Below are positions 51,099 to 64,000 of a DNA stretch of 64,000 nucleotides, in pieces. Origin of the DNA: Lysobacterales bacterium 66-474. Lineage in GTDB: Bacteria; Pseudomonadota; Gammaproteobacteria; Xanthomonadales; Rhodanobacteraceae. Position 1 is the stretch's first letter. Each line of letters starts with the position of its first letter. The stretch is taken from the NCBI GenBank assembly GCA_001899805.1, contig MKWP01000014.1:248001-312000 (forward strand), read 5' to 3'. Under the pieces are notes generated by a model. The model was given only the letters and a program-made list of their open reading frames with translations, was not told the DNA's origin and ran no database searches. A program made the translations under genes and the position numbers.

Positions 51099-51971
51099 TC
51101 AGTGCACGCGTTCGGTCGCGATGCCGAGCTTGCGCAGCTGCACCAGCACGCTGTCGGGTCCGGCAAGGTGGCCCGCGCCCACCGCGACGAAGATCGTGCC
51201 GCGACCTTCCAGCAGCGTTCCGATCTGTCGCGCCCAGGCCTGGTTGCGCTCGACCAGCAGCACCTTGTACAGGTCGGGATAATGTTCGCGCATGCCGCCG
51301 TTGACGTTTTCCGCGATGGCGGCGACGTTGCCCGATTGCCAGTAGCCGATCAGTTTGCCGATCTGGGCAGGGCCTTCGGCGTAGTCGTCGAGCGCGTTGC
51401 GCAGCAGGTCGAGTTGCAGGGCGGGCGACAGGTCGGCAAAGAACTTGATCTGTTGCTCGGCGGTTTCGAACGCGCCGATGGGTTTGCCCGAGGTCCTGAA
51501 TGCGCGTTCGAGTTGCTTGTCGGCGCCCGATTTCGGGTCGTAGCCGGCCTTGACGATGGGCGCGACCGCAATGGTCAGCGCGGCCAGCCAGGGTCGCATG
51601 GCATCGAGCGTGGTACTGCCGCCGGCGACGCCGGCTGCCTTGGCCGCGGCGTCGAGCTGTGCACGGTCGGCGGCGTCCAGTTTGCCCGACAGCGGATGCT
51701 GCAAATCCATCCCGTATTGCAGCACCAGCAGCTGCATCGTGACCGGGTCGTCGTCGTCTTCCTCCACGTACAGCGTGCCGCTCGCGGCCAATGCCTTGTC
51801 CAGCGCGGGATAGCGCCACTGCGTTGCATCCGGCAGGACGTGCACGGTGCCGAACAGATAGATGGTTGCGGTCGGGCTTTTCGCCATCCACAACACGGGG
51901 TCGGCCAGTGCCGGCGTGGATGTGCACAGCAAAAGCGCGAGGGCGAAGCAGAAGCGTCTCAATGGATTCAT
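51099..51971 (-). CDS. TraB/GumN-family exported protein
   Basis: The 290-residue protein has a signal peptide (to ALAD). The family motifs are [10 protein letters not shown] near the N-terminus and [14 protein letters not shown] near the C-terminus; these conserved GxxH motifs resemble metalloprotease sites (TIKI/TraB). Function in bacteria is not established. It is divergent from the PP2C gene. Confidence 0.88.
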
Positions 51972-52016
51972 CAGGACACGGCGCGCAAATTGAATCCGCG
52001 CATTGTGTCATGCGGC

Positions 52017-52041
52017 GTAATCGGCGACGGCGTTCGCCGAA
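52017..52041 (+). promoter_or_regulatory. Motif site A (GTAATCG-N13-CCGAA), upstream of PP2C
   Basis: GTAATCG at 52017-52023 and CCGAA at 52037-52041 are separated by 13 bases. It lies 102 bases before the phosphatase start. It is the first of five identical-spacing copies in this region; proposed ECF -35/-10 elements. Confidence 0.75.
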
Positions 52042-52143
52042 GTATTCCGGCAATGAAGCAGGTTGCACTTTTCCAATGGGCGCCGTGGCGCCGACCGGTG
52101 CGTGCGATCATGGGCCGCGGCCGCGGTATGCGCAGGTGATCGG

Positions 52144-52920
52144 ATGATCGGACGTCCCGCATGGTTCTCCGAGGTAGGCACGCGGGGCTCGAATGAGGAC
52201 AGCTGCGCGTTCTGGTGGGCGGGCGACACGCTGTTCGCCGCAATCGCCGACGGCCTGGGCGGCATGGGCGGCGGCGATCGCGCATCCAGCTACGTCGTCG
52301 GGTGCCTGAAGGCGCGCGCCACGCGTGCGGCCGTCAGCGCAAGCCAGCTGGCGGAGATGATCCGGCAGGGGCACCACGGGTTGCGACAACTGCAGCAACG
52401 CCAGGCGGAGCACCGTTCGATGGCAACCACGTTGACGGTGGTCGCATTGCGGGGCAGGACGCTCGTGGCTGCCCATTGCGGCGACACGCGCCTTTACGTC
52501 GCGGGGCGCGCGGGCGTCCGGCAGTTGACCGAGGATCATTCCGAAGCCCAACGTCTGCTCAACGAAGGCCTGCTGTCCCGGAGCGGGTTCGCGAGTTATC
52601 CGCGCAAGCACATCCTCGAAAGCGCGCTCGGCATTCCGGGTGTGCCGGCGGTGCAGGAAATCGAATGCCGGGTGGACGCGGGTGACTGGCTGGTGCTGGC
52701 TTCGGACGGCGCCTACGGCAAGCTCGTCCACGACGACCTGCATGATGCCGCTCGCGCGTCGCGCACGCCGCGGCAATTTTCGGAGGCGTGCCGCCGCCTC
52801 GTCGAAGCCCGGCAACCACGGGACAACTACACCCTGGTCGTGCTGCGCGCCATGAGCCAACGGGTGCCGCCCGTGTTGCAGCGCGCGCTGCAGTGTCGCA
52901 GGGCGGACGGCACCGTTTGA
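52144..52920 (+). CDS. PP2C-family Ser/Thr phosphatase
   Basis: The 258-residue soluble protein phosphatase is of the PppA/PrpC/Stp1 type. Metal-site motifs are present: TRGSNEDS, IADGLGGMGGGD, SMATTLT, CGDTRLY, LASDGAYGKL and the final PRDNYTLVVL. The start at ATG 52144 follows AGGTGA. As the only PP2C in view and with the shared promoter motif, it is the likely opponent of the kinase at 55916-60298. Confidence 0.93.
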   Translation: MIGRPAWFSEVGTRGSNEDSCAFWWAGDTLFAAIADGLGGMGGGDRASSYVVGCLKARATRAAVSASQLAEMIRQGHHGLRQLQQRQAEHRSMATTLTVVALRGRTLVAAHCGDTRLYVAGRAGVRQLTEDHSEAQRLLNEGLLSRSGFASYPRKHILESALGIPGVPAVQEIECRVDAGDWLVLASDGAYGKLVHDDLHDAARASRTPRQFSEACRRLVEARQPRDNYTLVVLRAMSQRVPPVLQRALQCRRADGTV

Positions 52921-52994
52921 CGGACCGCTGCCGACTGTTTCCCCGGCCATTCGACGTGGAGCATGCCGCCAGGCTGCAGCGCCGCCGCGTCGCT

Positions 52995-53019
52995 GTAATC
53001 GGCCGTACGTTTTGCCGAA
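52995..53019 (+). promoter_or_regulatory. Motif site B (GTAATCG-N13-CCGAA)
   Basis: GTAATCG 52995-53001, 13 bases, CCGAA 53015-53019. It lies 51 bases before the gene at 53071. It shares GCTGTAATCG with site E. Confidence 0.75.
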
Positions 53020-53070
53020 GTTGATGGTGACGCGGCATCCGCCGCGCATCCACCACCTGGAGCCACGGAC

Positions 53071-53721
53071 ATGCCGACCGTCAACGATGAATTCAACCGG
53101 ACCTGCGTCCGCCTCGATCTCGATGCCGAGCGCTCCGGCATCTTCACCCAGGATGAAGTGTCGCTCCGTTTCAGCGAAGACGACCTGCGCGTGTTCAACG
53201 ATTGCGCGGCGCGCATTGCGCCGGGTACGCCGGCGCTGGAATCGGAACAGATCGCCGGTGCGGCACGACGGCTCGCGCGCGCAGTGGGCGAGGGCAACCA
53301 GCCGCGCTTCATCCAGATCCGGATGCGCCGGGCCGGCGAGGTGCGCGCGATCCTCGACGATGCCGCATGGCATGTCGACCCCGCGCTCGTCGGGCCGATG
53401 CAGGACCTGATCGGCTACCTCGATGGTCCGGTGGCGCTGGTGCCGCTGGACGTGCCGGCGGTCGGCGGCCTGGATCGTGCGCTGCTCGTCGACATCGCAA
53501 TGGAACGTTTGCGCGCCGAACTGGACGAATACGCCGATTTCTGCAGGTATCGCGCGGCCGAAGCGCAACGCCTCGGGGTTCCGGTGGCGGCGGTTTCGAT
53601 CGATCGCGACGGTTGGGCGCTCGAGCGCAGCGAGGAACTTCGCCTCGAACGCCTGGTCCGCCGCGGCGGCGCCAGCCATGCGCGCGGCGGCGGTCAACCC
53701 GAAGTGTTCAGGGTGAGTTGA
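53071..53721 (+). CDS. Uncharacterised cytoplasmic protein in sigma/kinase cluster
   Basis: The 216-residue protein has no signal peptide or membrane helix and is mainly alpha-helical, acidic in the N-terminal half and Arg-rich at the end (LERLVRRGG). I do not recognise the family. ATG 53071 has GGAG ten bases upstream. It is preceded by promoter motif B, so it is a candidate regulon member. A regulator or kinase substrate role is possible but unproven. Confidence 0.65.
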   Translation: MPTVNDEFNRTCVRLDLDAERSGIFTQDEVSLRFSEDDLRVFNDCAARIAPGTPALESEQIAGAARRLARAVGEGNQPRFIQIRMRRAGEVRAILDDAAWHVDPALVGPMQDLIGYLDGPVALVPLDVPAVGGLDRALLVDIAMERLRAELDEYADFCRYRAAEAQRLGVPVAAVSIDRDGWALERSEELRLERLVRRGGASHARGGGQPEVFRVS

Positions 53722-53843
53722 TCCGCCGTCGAAACGGCGTGGCAGGGCACGGATTTTCGATTGCGCCGTGGCTGGAGTCCGCGGTGCCAGCAACCAGCAA
53801 GCGATCGGTCCCACGGACGGTGCCGCCGCCGAGGAGGTGGATC

Positions 53844-54209
53844 ATGAAATGCACGACTCTCGCGATCAGCGTTTTCGCAACCGTGGCGCTCGCGTCCGGC
53901 CAGGCGGCCAGCGCGGGGCAACCGCCGTCGTCGGCGCCCACCCGCGCCGAGGTCGACCAACAGGCCATGCAGGAGGGCCCGACCACCGGACGCATCGGCT
54001 ATCTCACGCACAAGGACCCGCCCGCGCCGCACCGCGCGGCCGCGCCGGTCGACCCGAGGATGCTGCGCCCGCTGACCAAGCGGGAAATCGGGATGCTCTT
54101 CAATGCATGCATCGCCTACGCGGAATGCAAGACCGCGTACGCCAAGGCCTATGAACACCACCAGGCCTTGCTGCGCGCGCAGCAGGCCAGCGCCGAGGGC
54201 GAGCCGTAA
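53844..54209 (+). CDS. Small secreted protein of unknown function
   Basis: The 121-residue protein has a clear signal peptide (to QAASAG, about residue 25) and a strong GAGGAGG ribosome site before ATG 53844. The mature part is Pro-rich then helical with two Cys (NACIAYAECK). It is followed by a strong terminator. It is probably cotranscribed with the gene at 53071. Confidence 0.75.
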   Translation: MKCTTLAISVFATVALASGQAASAGQPPSSAPTRAEVDQQAMQEGPTTGRIGYLTHKDPPAPHRAAAPVDPRMLRPLTKREIGMLFNACIAYAECKTAYAKAYEHHQALLRAQQASAEGEP

Positions 54210-54237
54210 GCGGAAAGGTCCGGCGTTCCGCGATTCT

Positions 54238-54279
54238 GCGGCTTCGGGTTTGTTCCAGCGGACCCGAAGCCGCGTTTTT
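54238..54279 (+). terminator. Rho-independent terminator
   Basis: GCGGCTTCGGGT (54238-54249) and ACCCGAAGCCGC (54262-54273) form a perfect 12-bp stem with a 12-nt loop, followed by GTTTTT. It ends the transcript of the small secreted gene and insulates the first sigma factor gene. Confidence 0.92.
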
Positions 54280-54420
54280 GCCATCCCCCTGGCGGCCGGA
54301 CCGCGGCTGTCGCGAGCAGAAAAATGCGGCAGGCGGTGCGCTTCATCGGCACTCTTTAATGCATAATGCGGCACGACAGGCGCGCACGGGGCGCCTGCCG
54401 GCTGCGTGAGGGCGCGGCGG

Positions 54421-55122
54421 ATGGGAAGGTTCGAGACGACACGCTGGAGTGTGGTGTTGCGCGCACGCGGCGAGCCCGTCGAAGCGCGCGCGGCACTGGA
54501 GTTGTTGTGCCGGACGTATCGGCCGCCCGTATTGGCCTTCGTGCGCAGTCGCGGTTATGCGATCGACGCCGCGGAAGACCTCACGCAAGCATTCTTCGCG
54601 CGGTTCCTGGAACGCGCGTGGCATTCCAGCGCCGATCCGGAACGCGGGCGCTTCCGCTCGTTCCTGCTGACTGCGTTGAAACGGTTCCTGATCGATGCCG
54701 ATGCCGAGGCGGCCGCGCTGAAGCGTGGCGGCGGCATTCGTTTCCAGGCATTGGATGACGACGGTGGCGGCGGGGATGGGGTGGGTGAAGCGCCCGATGC
54801 CGTGTTCGAACGCGAATGGGCGCACGCCGTCCTGAACGCGGCGTTCGGCCGCCTGCGCCGGGAAGCGGAACAGGCCGGCAAGCTCGAATTGTTCAAGCGC
54901 CTCGCGGAATTTCTCGTCGAGCGACCGGACGAGAGCGAGTACGCGCGCGCGGCCGAGGAACTGCACTTGCGCCGCAACACGCTCGCGGTGGCCGTGCACC
55001 GGTTGCGCCATCGCCTGCGCGAACTGGTGCGCGAGGAATTGAGCGAAACCACCTCGAACCGTGCCGACCTGGAGGAAGAGTTGCATACCCTGCGCGGATC
55101 GATGCAGGCACTGGCCCGATGA
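54421..55122 (+). CDS. ECF-type sigma factor 1 (kinase-associated class)
   Basis: The 233-residue protein starts with FETTRWSVVLRA, then a sigma region 2 (AEDLTQAFFARFLERAW) and a region 4 helix-turn-helix (EYARAAEELHLRRNTLAVAVHRLR). The TRWSxV opening and DLTQxFF core are typical of sigma factors that neighbour Ser/Thr kinases in Planctomycetes, Verrucomicrobia and Acidobacteria. No anti-sigma gene is adjacent. It lacks the shared promoter motif upstream, so it may be expressed by the housekeeping sigma. The start is ATG 54421; GTG 54406 is possible. Confidence 0.88.
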   Translation: MGRFETTRWSVVLRARGEPVEARAALELLCRTYRPPVLAFVRSRGYAIDAAEDLTQAFFARFLERAWHSSADPERGRFRSFLLTALKRFLIDADAEAAALKRGGGIRFQALDDDGGGGDGVGEAPDAVFEREWAHAVLNAAFGRLRREAEQAGKLELFKRLAEFLVERPDESEYARAAEELHLRRNTLAVAVHRLRHRLRELVREELSETTSNRADLEEELHTLRGSMQALAR

Positions 55123-55129
55123 CCGGGCC

Positions 55130-55154
55130 GTAATCGCCGTTCCCGCTTCCCGAA
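55130..55154 (+). promoter_or_regulatory. Motif site C (GTAATCG-N13-CCGAA), before sigma factor 2
   Basis: GTAATCG 55130-55136, 13 bases, CCGAA 55150-55154. It starts 7 bases after the sigma 1 stop and ends 33 bases before the sigma 2 start. It would drive the sigma 2-kinase-receptor operon. Confidence 0.78.
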
Positions 55155-55187
55155 TGGTTCGTCCATGCGATACGCGGATCGAAATGC

Positions 55188-55913
55188 ATGAGCCCAGCCG
55201 CCGACCACCTGCTCGAGGATTTCACCCGGACACGCTGGTCGATGGTGTGCCGGTTGCAAACCACCCGCGCCGGCGACGCGCGCGAGGCGCTGACCGAGCT
55301 GGCGTTGCGCTACTGGTATCCGGTTTACGCCTACGTCCGGCGCTGCGGCCATGCGCAGGAAATCGCGCAGGACATCACCCAGGTTTTCCTGCAGCAGGTG
55401 GCCGCCGATTTGCGCAACCACCGCAATACGCCGCCCGGCCGGTTCCGCGAATGGCTGTTGGCGCGCCTCAACACCTTTCTCGGCGGCGAGTGGCGGGAAC
55501 TCGCGGGCGCGGAAGGCGCTCCCGAGGCGCCGCCCTTGCCCGAGCTCGAATCGCGCAACCGCAGCGAACACGATCCGGAGGAATCGCCGGAGCAAGCCTA
55601 TCGGCGCAGTTTCGCGCTGGAAGTCTTGTCGCGCGGTTTGAAACGGCTGCGCGCCGAAGCGCGCCAGACCGGGCATCTCGACATGTGCGAGGCGCTGGAA
55701 CCATTCCTGACGCGTGAACCGTTGCCGGGTCAGTACGACGAACTCGGCCACAAGCTGTCGATTCGTCCGCTCGCGCTGGTGATTGCATTGAAACGCCTGC
55801 GGCAGCGGTTCCGCGAACTGGTTCGCGAAGAGCTGGCCGACACGGTGACGTCCGCGGAAGAGTTGGCCGCCGAGCAGCAAGCGTTGCTGGTCGCGCTGGA
55901 CCGGGGGCACTGA
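55188..55913 (+). CDS. ECF-type sigma factor 2 (kinase-associated class)
   Basis: The 241-residue paralogue of sigma 1 shows DFTRTRWSMVCRL, EIAQDITQVFLQQV and a region 4 ending LRQRFRELVREEL, which parallels LRHRLRELVREEL in sigma 1. It is separated from the kinase by two bases, so they are certainly one operon. The motif-C promoter suggests positive autoregulation or control by sigma 1. Kinase-dependent activation has precedent in Vibrio EcfP/PknT and Xanthomonas EcfK/PknS. Confidence 0.88.
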   Translation: MSPAADHLLEDFTRTRWSMVCRLQTTRAGDAREALTELALRYWYPVYAYVRRCGHAQEIAQDITQVFLQQVAADLRNHRNTPPGRFREWLLARLNTFLGGEWRELAGAEGAPEAPPLPELESRNRSEHDPEESPEQAYRRSFALEVLSRGLKRLRAEARQTGHLDMCEALEPFLTREPLPGQYDELGHKLSIRPLALVIALKRLRQRFRELVREELADTVTSAEELAAEQQALLVALDRGH

Positions 55914-55915
55914 GG

Positions 55916-60298
<4,383 letters not shown>

Positions 60299-60311
60299 GG
60301 GGGCGTGTGTC

Positions 60312-63194
60312 GTGACACCCTGCAAGCGTATCGTCGGCTGTTTGTCACTGCTGGTGCTGTGCGGCGGCGGGGATGCGTTCGCAGCCGACCCACCGCACGA
60401 CGGCAGCAACACGCCGCAGCAACAAGGTTCCGATACCGCCGGGGCGGCGCAAACGCTCGGGACGATCTACGTCACCGGCAGCCACATCCGCAGCATCGAC
60501 CTGGAGACCCAGCACCCGCTGTTGGTGATGAAACGCGACGACTTGCTGCGCACCGGCCTCACCGACATCGGCGTGATCGTGCAGAACATCGTCGTCAACG
60601 GGCAGACCCAGAACCGCAACATCAACAACGGCACCGACGCCCGCGAATTGGTCAACCTGCGCAGCCTCGGTCCCAACCGCACGCTGGTGCTGATGAACGG
60701 CCAGCGCTGGGTCAGCGGGCTGGACGGCGCGGTGGATCTTTCCGCGATTCCGCTGGCCCTGGTCGAACGGGTCGAAGTCCTGAAGGATGGCGCGTCGGCG
60801 ATCTACGGCTCCGATGCCATCGCCGGCGTCATCAACATCATCACCCGCAGGGATTTCAAGGGCGCCGAGCTGGGTGCCTATTACGGCGAAACCGACCATG
60901 GCGATGGCATCCGCCGCGATGCCGAATTCAGTTATGGACGCAGTGGTGATCGCTGGAACGTCTCGTTCGGCATCGAGTACGCCAAGGACGATCCGGTCAT
61001 GGCCGGCGACCGGACGATCTCGTCGGTACCCATCGCGGGCCTGCCGCTCGGCGCGACTGGCGTCACGTTCATGATGTTTCGTTACCACGATGGGGCCTAC
61101 ACCCGTATCGGAGGGCGCCCCGGCACGTCGCCGGGTGATTTCCGTCCCTTCGATTGGGCGACCGACTGGAGCATCAATTTTGCTCCATACAACTACCTGC
61201 AGACGCCACTTGAGCGCAAGGCGCTCTTTGCGCAGGCTCGTTTCGAACTGACGCCAAACGTTGCGATATCGGGTGACGTCCTGTTCAACCGGCGGCAATC
61301 GGCCCAGCAATTGGCGCCACCGCGGGTCGGGTTCGGGTCGTTCTGTTGCGGCGGGACACCCGCTGGGTTCGACGTCTCGCCCGACAACGTCTACAACCCC
61401 TTCGATGATCCGATTACCGCTTTCCAGCGGCGGTTTCTCGAAGACCGCCCGCGCCGCTGGCAACAGACCGTGGATACGAGTCGCGGGCATCTCGCCCTCG
61501 ATGGCTTGTTCGATGTCGCGGGCAGATCGATCGCGTGGGGCGTGGACGTGTCGCAGGCACGTGCCGACCAGCACGAGACAGTCTTTCCCTTCCAGGACAA
61601 CGCGAAACTGGCGCTTGCGCTCGGCCCGTCGTTCTTCGATGCAAGCGGGATCGCCCGTTGCGGGAGCCCGTCCGCGCCGATCGAAGGTTGCGTGCCGCTG
61701 GATGTGTTCGGGCCGCCCGGCTCGATCACACCTGCGATGCTCGACTACGTGGATGCGCAGGCCAGCAACCGGATGAAGACCGAAACGCGTGATTTCCTGC
61801 TGCACGCGACCACCACCCTGATCGAATTGCCGGCCGGCGAGTTGAACGTCGCCGCCGGTGCGGAATATCGCCACGAAAGCGGCGCCGACGATCCGGACGA
61901 ATTGCTGGCCAGCGGCCGGGCCAACGGCGGGGGCGTCAATTACCGACCGACCGAAGGCGCGTACTCCGTCAGGGAAGCGTTCGTGGAATTCGAGATCCCG
62001 CTGCTGGCGGGGCACCCACTCGCGCGCCAGCTCGGTCTCGATGTGGCATCGCGCTGGTCCGACTATTCGCTGTTCGGCAGCGCGACCAATTCGCAGTTGG
62101 GATTGCGCTGGAAGCCGATCGACGACCTGCTGCTGCGGGCCAGCTACATCGAGGGCTTTCGCGCACCGAGCGTGGTGGATTTGTTCCAGGGGCTGGTCAG
62201 TGCCGGCGAAGAATCCATGGATCCGTGCGCGGCGGACAGTCACCCCGACGCGGCCACCCTGGCGCGCTGCGCCGGGGCGGGCGTTCCCGCCGGCGTCACC
62301 GATTGGGGCGGTTCGGCGGTCACCATCGGCGGCAACCCGGCGCTCAAACCCGAGATCGCGCGCACGCACACCCTCGGCTTTGTGTACGCCCCTTCGTGGC
62401 TGCCGGGGCTGGGCGTGAGCCTGGACTGGTACCGGATCCAGATCACGAACGCGATCGGCGAACGCACGCCGCAGTCGATCCTGAATGCGTGTTACATGCT
62501 GGGCGACACGAACGCCTGCTCGCTGGTCACGCGCGATCCGGTGGATCGTTCGCTGTCGAACGTCGACGCGGCCCAGCAGAACATCCCGGGAGGCCTCGAG
62601 ACCGAAGGTTACGATTTCTCGCTGGACTGGCGGCGCGAGACGTCATTCGGCCAGTTCCGACTGCGCTGGGACAACGCCTACGTGAGTTATTACGGCGAAA
62701 TCGGCCAGTCCGCGACAGGCGCGCTGTTGCCGGACGGTTCGCCGGCGCAAGGCAACGTGGTCGGCAAGAACGAGCAGCCGGGAGGTTTTTACGGCGTGGT
62801 GTGGCGCCTGCGCTCGGTCATGGCGCTTGCCTGGCAGCGCGGGGCCTGGAACGCATCGATCGACGCGCGCTATTTTTCGCCCATCACCGAAAGTTGCAAG
62901 TACGTCGCCGACGCGGCGAAGACTGTTGGCGATCCGGCGTTGCTCGATCTGTGCTCCGATCCCGGCCACATGCAGGACGGCCGGCGGGCGCCGCTGAATC
63001 GCGTCGGCGCGGTGGCCTACTTCGACCTGCAGGCCGGCTGGACCGCGCCATGGAACGGCCGCGTCACCGTTGGCGTGCGCAACGCCTTCGACCGCAACCC
63101 GCCGGTGGCGTACTCGGCGGCCGCCAATTCGTTCTTCCCGGACTACGACATCCCCGGCCGGTTTTTTTACGCCAGCTATCGGCAGAAGTTCTGA
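60312..63194 (+). CDS. TonB-dependent outer-membrane receptor
   Basis: The 960-residue protein has a signal peptide (to DAFAAD), a plug domain (IYVTGSHIR; DGASAIYGSDAIAGVINIIT) and a 22-strand-type barrel ending in Phe (SYRQKF). The start is GTG 60312, 13 bases after the kinase stop with GAGGGGG upstream, so it is in the same operon. The long loops and Cys residues give no clear ligand; the class resembles oligosaccharide/peptide receptors of Xanthomonads rather than classic siderophore ones. No FecR-type anti-sigma gene is present. Confidence 0.93.
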   Translation: MTPCKRIVGCLSLLVLCGGGDAFAADPPHDGSNTPQQQGSDTAGAAQTLGTIYVTGSHIRSIDLETQHPLLVMKRDDLLRTGLTDIGVIVQNIVVNGQTQNRNINNGTDARELVNLRSLGPNRTLVLMNGQRWVSGLDGAVDLSAIPLALVERVEVLKDGASAIYGSDAIAGVINIITRRDFKGAELGAYYGETDHGDGIRRDAEFSYGRSGDRWNVSFGIEYAKDDPVMAGDRTISSVPIAGLPLGATGVTFMMFRYHDGAYTRIGGRPGTSPGDFRPFDWATDWSINFAPYNYLQTPLERKALFAQARFELTPNVAISGDVLFNRRQSAQQLAPPRVGFGSFCCGGTPAGFDVSPDNVYNPFDDPITAFQRRFLEDRPRRWQQTVDTSRGHLALDGLFDVAGRSIAWGVDVSQARADQHETVFPFQDNAKLALALGPSFFDASGIARCGSPSAPIEGCVPLDVFGPPGSITPAMLDYVDAQASNRMKTETRDFLLHATTTLIELPAGELNVAAGAEYRHESGADDPDELLASGRANGGGVNYRPTEGAYSVREAFVEFEIPLLAGHPLARQLGLDVASRWSDYSLFGSATNSQLGLRWKPIDDLLLRASYIEGFRAPSVVDLFQGLVSAGEESMDPCAADSHPDAATLARCAGAGVPAGVTDWGGSAVTIGGNPALKPEIARTHTLGFVYAPSWLPGLGVSLDWYRIQITNAIGERTPQSILNACYMLGDTNACSLVTRDPVDRSLSNVDAAQQNIPGGLETEGYDFSLDWRRETSFGQFRLRWDNAYVSYYGEIGQSATGALLPDGSPAQGNVVGKNEQPGGFYGVVWRLRSVMALAWQRGAWNASIDARYFSPITESCKYVADAAKTVGDPALLDLCSDPGHMQDGRRAPLNRVGAVAYFDLQAGWTAPWNGRVTVGVRNAFDRNPPVAYSAAANSFFPDYDIPGRFFYASYRQKF

Positions 63195-63238
63195 CGCTAG
63201 AAGTCGTGATTTGCGGCGCGGAAGTAATCGTTGCGCGA

Positions 63239-63263
63239 GTAATCGTTGCGCGGCGTTTCCGAA
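63239..63263 (+). promoter_or_regulatory. Motif site D (GTAATCG-N13-CCGAA) with duplicated -35
   Basis: GTAATCG 63239-63245, 13 bases, CCGAA 63259-63263. The 15 bases 63224-63238 are a tandem copy of the next 15 (gTAATCGttgcgcgR), so two -35-like boxes stand in series. It lies 45 bases after the receptor stop. Confidence 0.72.
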
Positions 63264-63269
63264 ATGATG

Positions 63270-63468
63270 GTTGAGGGGCGATCCCTCAATACCTGGTCGG
63301 CGGTGTCGACCGACTGCAACGCCGCTGCCGGGCCATGGTCCAGGAATACGTGGCGGCCCGGCAGGTTGCCGGCGGCGTGGATGTCGCCGCCAAGTGAACC
63401 GGACGCCTGAGCACTCTCCAGCAGATGGTGTCCCTTTTCGCGCCCCGCTTCGCGGGGCGCATTTTTTC
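63270..63468 (+). ncRNA. Candidate short transcript (sRNA or small-protein mRNA)
   Basis: This stretch is bounded by promoter motif D and a strong terminator. It begins with the hairpin TTGAGGG-N5-CCCTCAA at the expected start point. No reading frame with a good ribosome site is seen. One frame could give a 20-residue peptide from ATG 63344 (MVQEYVAARQ...), and another frame starts inside the -10 box and so could not be translated from this promoter. I call it a probable non-coding RNA; peptide coding is not excluded. Confidence 0.45.
63441..63468 (+). terminator. Rho-independent terminator
   Basis: GCGCCCCGC (63441-63449) and GCGGGGCGC (63453-63461) form a nine-base perfect stem with a 3-nt loop, followed by ATTTTTT. 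Confidence 0.93.
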
Positions 63469-63564
63469 CAGATACAAGGAATCCATGGCTCCCTTCACGC
63501 GACCGGGGAGCAGCGCCGGGCTATCCGAAGCGGCCGCACGCCGCGTCGTTTCGCGTCGGCCGCT

Positions 63565-63589
63565 GTAATCGCTACCCGGTGTTTCCGAA
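63565..63589 (+). promoter_or_regulatory. Motif site E (GTAATCG-N13-CCGAA)
   Basis: GTAATCG 63565-63571, 13 bases, CCGAA 63585-63589. A hairpin TGAGGG-gtgaa-CCCTCA (63598-63614) at the expected start point matches the one after site D. It lies 104 bases before the gene at 63694. Confidence 0.75.
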
Positions 63590-63693
63590 CTGTGGATTGA
63601 GGGGTGAACCCTCACTGCCCAGGGATGCGGGCGAATCCCCATCCACGCACGCCCGTCAGGGAAGACCCGCTGCAGGTTTCGGAGGTCATCGTC

Positions 63694-64000
63694 ATGAAAC
63701 TTCGTGCAATCCTGATCGCCATCTCCCTGGCTGGTTTCGCCGGCGCCGCGGCAGCGGGCGAAACGCACACGATCATGCAGCCCGCCCAGACCATCCAGCT
63801 GCTCTCGCAGGCAACCGGCCTGACGGTTCATGAGGTCGAGATCGCGTTGAGCCCGTCCACGAATTACGAGCACCCCACCAGGTACGCATCCGTCTACCGG
63901 CGTTTTCAACAGGCCGTGGGGCGAACGATGTACGAGCGGATCATGGGCGACGGTGAACTCAGCGCGCGGCAGGTGCAGGACCTGGTCGCCATGGCCGAGG
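63694..64000 (+). CDS. Secreted protein of unknown function, 3' end outside window
   Basis: ATG 63694 follows GGAGG and the frame stays open to the window end (102 residues seen). There is a signal peptide (to AAAAGE, about residue 22). The mature part is helical (QPAQTIQLLSQATGLTVHEV; YERIMGDGELSARQVQDLV). I do not recognise the family. It lies under promoter motif E and so is a candidate output gene of the sigma/kinase module. Confidence 0.75.
   Translation, partial: MKLRAILIAISLAGFAGAAAAGETHTIMQPAQTIQLLSQATGLTVHEVEIALSPSTNYEHPTRYASVYRRFQQAVGRTMYERIMGDGELSARQVQDLVAMAE

What the first reader, a model, noticed from the sequence alone, without database searches (positions are those of the whole stretch)
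52017..63589. Five copies of one bipartite promoter motif define a local regulon
GTAATCG-N13-CCGAA occurs at 52017, 52995, 55130, 63239 and 63565. All are on the + strand with exactly 13 bases between the boxes, and each lies upstream of a gene or terminator-bounded unit. I found no other copy on either strand of the window. Twelve fixed bases five times in 12 kb cannot be chance. The box spacing suits an ECF sigma -35/-10 pair. A TTT or GTT just before CCGAA recurs. I know of no described sigma class with exactly this pair of boxes.
Basis: partly seen in the sequence, partly recalled or inferred. Interest (0 to 1): 0.9.

Follow-up and report, generated by a model that had tools for sequence, protein, structure and literature searches.

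The report
Promoter code of a kinase-linked sigma regulon
A two-part DNA signal found seven times in this bacterium most likely marks genes switched on by one specialised sigma factor that works with a protein kinase, and versions of the same signal stand beside the same sigma gene in related bacteria.

Summary
GTAATCG-N13-CCGAA occurs exactly five times in the window, as stated (0.01 expected); the 3.73 Mb genome holds two more, on another contig. All seven face a gene or gene remnant on the same strand. The cluster encodes a PP2C phosphatase, a DUF1232-like protein (U216), an ECF sigma (ECF1), a degraded ECF paralogue (ECF2), a WD40 Ser/Thr kinase, a TonB receptor and small exported proteins. 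The motif core is kept upstream of U216 (18 of 19 regions) and ECF2 (22 of 35), rarely of ECF1 (1 of 47); opposite-strand control 0 of 152. In 35 genomes with ECF1/ECF2-family genes, 24 of 39 exact copies lie within 20 kb of them, 0.93 expected. Six of ten genomes with ECF1 but no separate ECF2 keep a variant near ECF1; opposite strand 0 of ten. ECF1 itself has a conserved TATAAT-like box in the window's clade. Best reading: an ECF-type promoter read by ECF1, whose targets include ECF2, the phosphatase and exported proteins; the -35 box is steady while the -10 differs between lineages. No transcript data exist here. New variant of a known kind.

The parts
52017..52041 (+). motif copy 1, GTAATCG-N13-CCGAA, before the PP2C phosphatase gene
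   Evidence: relative L074 also has an exact copy before PP2C
52144..52920 (+). PP2C-type Ser/Thr protein phosphatase
   Evidence: PF13672 2e-14 above cut-off; NF033484 2.9e-38 but below its cut-off
52995..53019 (+). motif copy 2, 51 nt before U216
53071..53721 (+). U216, 216-aa protein, helical in the model, weak DUF1232 (YkvA) similarity in orthologs
   Evidence: DUF1232 in 4 of 12 orthologs, best 7.1e-05, not in the window's own copy; model pLDDT 79
53844..54209 (+). small exported-looking protein, DUF4148-like, shares an REIGMLF segment with motif-led proteins of relatives
   Evidence: PF13663 2.1e-05, 25.3 bits against cut-off 27
54237..54274 (+). terminator-like hairpin (17 pairs) between this unit and ECF1
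   Evidence: 8 such sites in the region, 9.1 in shuffles
54361..54367 (+). GCATAAT, TATAAT-like box 60 nt before ECF1
   Evidence: box at 59-68 nt before nine ECF1 genes, the window's included; no full sigma-70 promoter match here
54421..55122 (+). ECF1, ECF sigma factor, proposed reader of the motif (alternative start 54406)
   Evidence: PF04542 29.1 bits, cut-off 24; TIGR02937 41.1 bits, cut-off 42.9
55130..55154 (+). motif copy 3, 33 nt before ECF2
55188..55913 (+). ECF2, divergent paralogue of ECF1 (34% identical) with altered region 2.2
55916..60298 (+). Hanks-type Ser/Thr kinase with WD40 region
   Evidence: PF00069 5.8e-51, PF00400
60306..63194 (+). TonB-dependent receptor (start approximate)
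   Evidence: PF00593 4.5e-37, PF07715
63239..63263 (+). motif copy 4
63270..63290 (+). leader hairpin after motif copy 4
63284..63397 (+). C-terminal remnant of an exported-protein gene
   Evidence: E 1e-10 to 1.5e-14 against five proteins of relatives
63440..63460 (+). terminator-like hairpin
63565..63589 (+). motif copy 5, 104 nt before the exported-protein gene
63596..63616 (+). leader hairpin after motif copy 5
63694..64000 (+). small exported-looking protein, 120 aa, runs off the window

Best explanation
GTAATCG (-35) and CCGAA (-10) form an ECF-type promoter read by the cluster's ECF1 sigma. ECF1 is probably transcribed from its own TATAAT-like promoter and gated at the protein level by the kinase and the PP2C phosphatase. 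When active it starts transcription a few bases after CCGAA and switches on PP2C, U216, ECF2 with the kinase downstream, and small exported proteins, some with a hairpin at the 5' end of the mRNA. Shown by sequence: motif, placement, conservation, association with ECF1. Inferred: which sigma reads it, start sites, kinase control, signal.
For: Five exact copies in the window and seven in the genome. Motif core in full 150-nt upstream regions: U216 18 of 19, ECF2 22 of 35, PP2C 2 of 3, sec-type exported protein 3 of 3, DUF4148-like 1 of 3, kinase 1 of 42, ECF1 1 of 47; opposite strand 0 of 152. In 106 regions the commonest 6+5 spaced word found without the motif as input is GTAATC-14-CCGAA, 23 regions against at most 4 in five sets of shuffles. 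24 of 39 exact copies in the 35 genomes with ECF1/ECF2-family matches lie within 20 kb of one, 0.93 expected; 19 within 5 kb, 0.26 expected. Of ten genomes with ECF1 and no separate ECF2, six have GTAATCG-N15-GNA near ECF1, opposite strand 0 of ten, shuffles mean 0.06. The spacing suits the 15-17 nt and the start 3-6 nt after the -10 used in PMC10880074 (passages). Leader hairpins right after the site: z below -1.5 in 10 of 44 sites against 3, 2 and 1 of 44 at three other offsets. The ECF1 clade has a TATAAT-like box at 59-68 nt in nine genes.
Against: No transcript or binding data. Four of the ten ECF1-only genomes show no motif near ECF1; in two of the six it is 1.6-1.7 kb upstream and only one of the six has CCGAA itself. 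13 of 35 ECF2 regions lack the core. The exact pattern also occurs 73 times in the 162 sampled family genomes without such ECF genes (my tally), so it is not sufficient. The TATAAT-like box occurs in 10 of 47 ECF1 regions only, and the consensus scan finds no full sigma-70 promoter in 51900-64000. Other spaced words at 19-21 regions show that orthologous DNA alone can score high; the best on the reverse strand was 18. The 19 one-mismatch genome sites were not placed. The two C9 copies are one duplication.
Confidence: 0.75

Rival explanations
1. The motif is an ECF promoter, but ECF2, or ECF1 and ECF2 with overlapping specificity, reads it.
For: ECF2's region 4.2-like end (ALKRLRQR.REL) is among its best conserved stretches, and the motif sits right before ECF2, as in autoregulated ECF genes.
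Against: A motif variant stays near ECF1 in 6 of 10 genomes with no separate ECF2; ECF2 keeps the acidic pair of region 2.2 in 2 of 33 sequences, ECF1 in 47 of 47; no Pfam sigma hit in any of 21 ECF2 members at E up to 0.1.
Confidence: 0.15
2. The motif is the site of an ordinary activator or repressor and the promoter lies elsewhere.
For: Transcript starts are unmapped; two-part sites also suit other regulators.
Against: Not palindromic; same strand as the gene throughout the counted regions; 25-39 nt from ECF2 starts and 30-60 nt from U216 starts; no sigma-70 promoter match in 51900-64000 that could serve instead; hairpins begin where a transcript would.
Confidence: 0.08
3. The copies are a mobile or duplicated repeat rather than promoters.
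For: The C9 pair is a local duplication.
Against: Flanks and spacers of 27 exact sites carry little information outside the boxes apart from a T before GTAATCG, TT before CCGAA and an A in the leader hairpin; kept at orthologous places in several families.
Confidence: 0.02

Closest known systems
ECF43 sigma factors with Hanks-type kinases (EcfK/PknS of Xanthomonas citri, EcfP/PknT of Vibrio parahaemolyticus)
   Same: ECF sigma beside a Ser/Thr kinase; kinase control of a sigma is the likely logic.
   Different: ECF43 replaces the charged region 2.2 residues by a QTTA-like motif (PMC13147305, PMC8103513, passages). ECF1 keeps an acidic pair (47 of 47), ECF2 mostly loses it but without a conserved Thr (14 of 33). 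Here two paralogues, a WD40 kinase, PP2C, a DUF1232-like protein and often a TonB receptor stand together. No promoter sequence for ECF43 was in the passages read.
Autoregulated ECF sigma promoters in general
   Same: Two boxes with near-fixed spacing, mostly local targets.
   Different: The proposed sigma gene ECF1 is rarely under the motif (1 of 47); its paralogue ECF2 often is (22 of 35).
ECF59 and the former ECF60 (kinase-linked)
   Same: Kinase neighbour (PMC8103513, passage).
   Different: Membership not testable here; no models of these groups on hand.

Membership tests
ECF sigma factor (ECF1) | sigma70 region 2 by profile | tested here: met
   PF04542 29.1 bits against cut-off 24
ECF sigma factor (ECF1) | region 4 and the ECF superfamily profile | tested here: inconclusive
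   TIGR02937 41.1 bits against cut-off 42.9, residues 25-201; no region 4 hit in Pfam; no solved relative by sequence
ECF sigma factor (ECF2) | sigma regions by profile or fold | tested here: inconclusive
   no Pfam sigma hit in 21 members; 34% identical to ECF1, E 8.9e-28 and 1.9e-27; fold search: nothing at E<=0.001, AlgU at ranks 2-3 and SigW at rank 6 with TM-scores of 0.24-0.30 on the query
ECF43 | uncharged QTTA-like residues in place of the acidic region 2.2 motif | tested here: not met
   acidic pair in 47 of 47 ECF1; lost in 31 of 33 ECF2 but Thr there in only 14 of 33
ECF43 | Hanks-type kinase gene nearby | tested here: met
   window kinase; kinase hit in 17 of 20 stretches (not in L147, L155, L157)
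ECF promoter | two boxes 15-17 nt apart with a start 3-6 nt downstream | tested here: inconclusive
   spacing fits; start not mapped, only hairpin evidence
ECF promoter | transcription depends on the cognate sigma | not testable with these tools
   needs experiment

The most novel reading that the evidence does not exclude
ECF2 is a former sigma factor turned regulator: made from the ECF1-dependent promoter, with a degraded core-binding region but a conserved end, it is the kinase's substrate and a feedback partner (decoy or co-sigma) of ECF1, so that a duplicated sigma pair forms a switch with no anti-sigma factor recognised in the cluster. Meanwhile the -35 box stayed fixed and the -10 box drifted with the lineage.
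Probability: 0.25. Interest if true: 0.75.

Novelty: new variant of a known kind. Interest (0 to 1): 0.55.

Why it matters
It gives a testable promoter code and target list for a kinase-linked sigma system spread over Lysobacterales (the order of Xanthomonas and Lysobacter, recalled). I found no description of this promoter in the searches made (open-licence papers only, listings apart from passages of four papers). An intact and a degraded sigma paralogue under different promoters is a good place to ask how sigma copies take on regulatory roles.

Tried and rejected
Two mismatches in the window gave no excess. A repeat origin was rejected. Sequence searches of solved structures gave nothing for ECF1 or the ECF2 profile; fold searches gave nothing significant for ECF2 or U216. 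The leader hairpin is a subset feature, 10 of 44 sites, and its covariation is modest: against 500 shuffles, cells paired reached by 15, covariation score by 14, cells changed on both sides by 24, further pair types by 37, pairs changed on both sides by 104; I chose that stem after seeing the alignment. At word lengths 5+4 the motif ranked only sixth, behind words that look like conserved coding sequence, which I did not test further. Searches for GTAATC and GTAATCG with sigma-factor terms returned 29 and 37 papers, 15 listed each, seen as titles and abstract starts; none recognisable as this motif. I saw no single ECF1 residue that tracks the -10 variants, but made no formal test.

Full report
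What was checked. GTAATCG-N13-CCGAA occurs five times in the window, where stated, all on the + strand, with 0.01 expected. The whole genome (3,728,788 bases) has seven, and none of the reversed control pattern. The two outside the window lie on contig C9, 826 bp apart with the same bases after them; they end 70 and 68 nt before the likely ATG of two paralogous small exported-looking proteins. So all seven copies face a gene or, at 63239, a gene remnant.

The neighbourhood. Searches give: PP2C phosphatase, U216 (weakly DUF1232-like in 4 of 12 orthologs), a DUF4148-like protein, ECF1, ECF2, a Ser/Thr kinase with WD40 region, a TonB-dependent receptor and a small exported-looking protein. Of 26 named loci with an ECF2 relative, 3 titles say Rhodanobacteraceae, 2 Lysobacteraceae, 2 Lysobacterales, 12 Proteobacteria, 1 Gammaproteobacteria, 2 Verrucomicrobiales, and one each Rhodanobacter, Rudaea, Luteimonas and Arenimonas. 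The closest (80% identical, L091) is a Rhodanobacteraceae MAG whose match agrees in identity, contig length and place with G107, of the window's own genus, so I place the window in Rhodanobacteraceae (inference). The motif at 63239 is followed by a hairpin, then 37 or so C-terminal codons of the exported-protein family, then a terminator-like hairpin.

Conservation. In relatives the motif stands before U216, ECF2, PP2C, exported proteins and once before a second kinase. With GTAATC and an A at the last place counted in full 150-nt upstream regions: U216 18 of 19, ECF2 22 of 35, PP2C 2 of 3, sec-type exported protein 3 of 3, DUF4148-like 1 of 3, kinase 1 of 42, ECF1 1 of 47; on the opposite strand 0 of 152 (three cut-off ECF2 regions dropped; some loci carry two paralogous pairs). 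A count of spaced words in 106 regions puts GTAATC-14-CCGAA first at 6+5 letters with 23 regions and GTAATCG-13-CCGAA first at 7+5 with 21; shuffles reach 4 and 3; other words reach 21 and 20, the reverse strand 18 and 16; at 5+4 the motif ranks sixth with 25. Two of the 106 regions were sliced wrongly and one was short. In 27 unique exact sites the spacer carries little information except T in 20 and 22 of 27 at the two places before the last spacer base, and T precedes the first box in 19 of 27; the boxes themselves were fixed by selection.

Association. Of 197 family genomes, 71 have an exact copy, 112 copies by my tally, and the reversed pattern occurs 8 times. 35 genomes have an ECF1/ECF2-family match; they hold 39 copies, the other 162 hold 73, which are background. 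Of the 39, 24 lie within 20 kb of an ECF gene against 0.93 expected, 19 within 5 kb against 0.26.

Which sigma. ECF1-like proteins occur in 32 of 398 sampled genomes of the order at E<=1e-25. Twelve that looked ECF1-only were tested with the ECF2 profile: in ten the only match is ECF1 itself; G411 has a separate ECF2 and G339 a second partial match. Of the ten, G166, G008, G393, G404, G415 and G438 have GTAATCG-N15-GNA between 2.5 kb upstream and 1.6 kb downstream of the ECF1 start; G209, G219, G311 and G440 do not; opposite strand 0 of ten; shuffles mean 0.06, at most 1. The endings are CCGAA, CCGCA, CTGTA, CCGTA, GTGAA and CCGTA. G166 is 81% complete. In G438 and G404 this is the only match of GTAATCG-N13-CCGWA in the genome. 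This points to ECF1. Nine ECF1 genes, the window's included, have a GCATAAT-type box at 59-68 nt and one more has a box at 40 nt, 10 of 47, with 0 of 105 in the other regions and 0.12 expected in shuffles. In the window a terminator-like hairpin separates ECF1 from the motif-led unit before it. So ECF1 seems to be transcribed independently and controlled later. Against this, the consensus scan reports no full sigma-70 promoter in 51900-64000.

-10 drift. The -35 box stays GTAATCG or GTAATC while the -10 reads CCGAA, CGGAA, CTGAA, TGGAA, CCGTA or CGGTA in different loci. I saw no single ECF1 residue that tracks this, and made no formal test.

ECF2. It is related to ECF1 (34% identity), matches no Pfam sigma family in 21 members and keeps the acidic pair of region 2.2 in 2 of 33 sequences while ECF1 keeps it in 47 of 47. 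Its model (pLDDT 85) has no significant PDB match, though AlgU and SigW are among the first six.

Transcript start. PMC10880074 uses a start 3-6 nt after the ECF -10 box (passages). Folding of 38 nt from 6 nt after CCGAA gives z below -1.5 in 10 of 44 sites against 3, 2 and 1 of 44 at three other offsets. Thirteen exported-protein leaders share a stem with 83.7% of cells paired and some compensatory change, modestly above shuffles.

Literature. Passages of PMC8103513, PMC8999054, PMC13147305 and PMC10880074 were read; other papers only as listings. The main ECF classification paper is not held, so absence of this promoter from print is not established.

Verdict. A real, conserved motif, most likely the promoter of an ECF sigma system with a Ser/Thr kinase; ECF1 the most likely reader; the set of exact copies small and mostly local; ECF2 a curious degraded paralogue inside the regulon.

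Noticed in passing
63264-63460: Motif copy 4 heads a deletion remnant of the exported-protein gene family: leader hairpin, about 37 C-terminal codons, terminator-like hairpin.
   Followed up: yes
L071:4666-6149 (own genome, contig C9): Two paralogous small exported-looking proteins (GENRIVGMWHLVV / GENRIVGTWHVSV), each after an exact motif copy, between genes that look like S-adenosylmethionine synthetase and PEP carboxylase (names recalled, not tested).
   Followed up: partly
L090:9057-10753 (own genome, contig C15): A third ECF1-like sigma (38-39% identical) next to its own kinase, with no copy at up to one mismatch in the 20 kb stretch: a possible sister system with another promoter code.
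   Followed up: partly
53071-53721: U216, weakly DUF1232-like in orthologs, follows the motif in 18 of 19 regions; its role is unknown.
   Followed up: partly
63224-63230: A second GTAATCG box starts 15 bases before motif copy 4, followed by the same TTGCGCG letters: a partial duplication of the -35 side.
   Followed up: no
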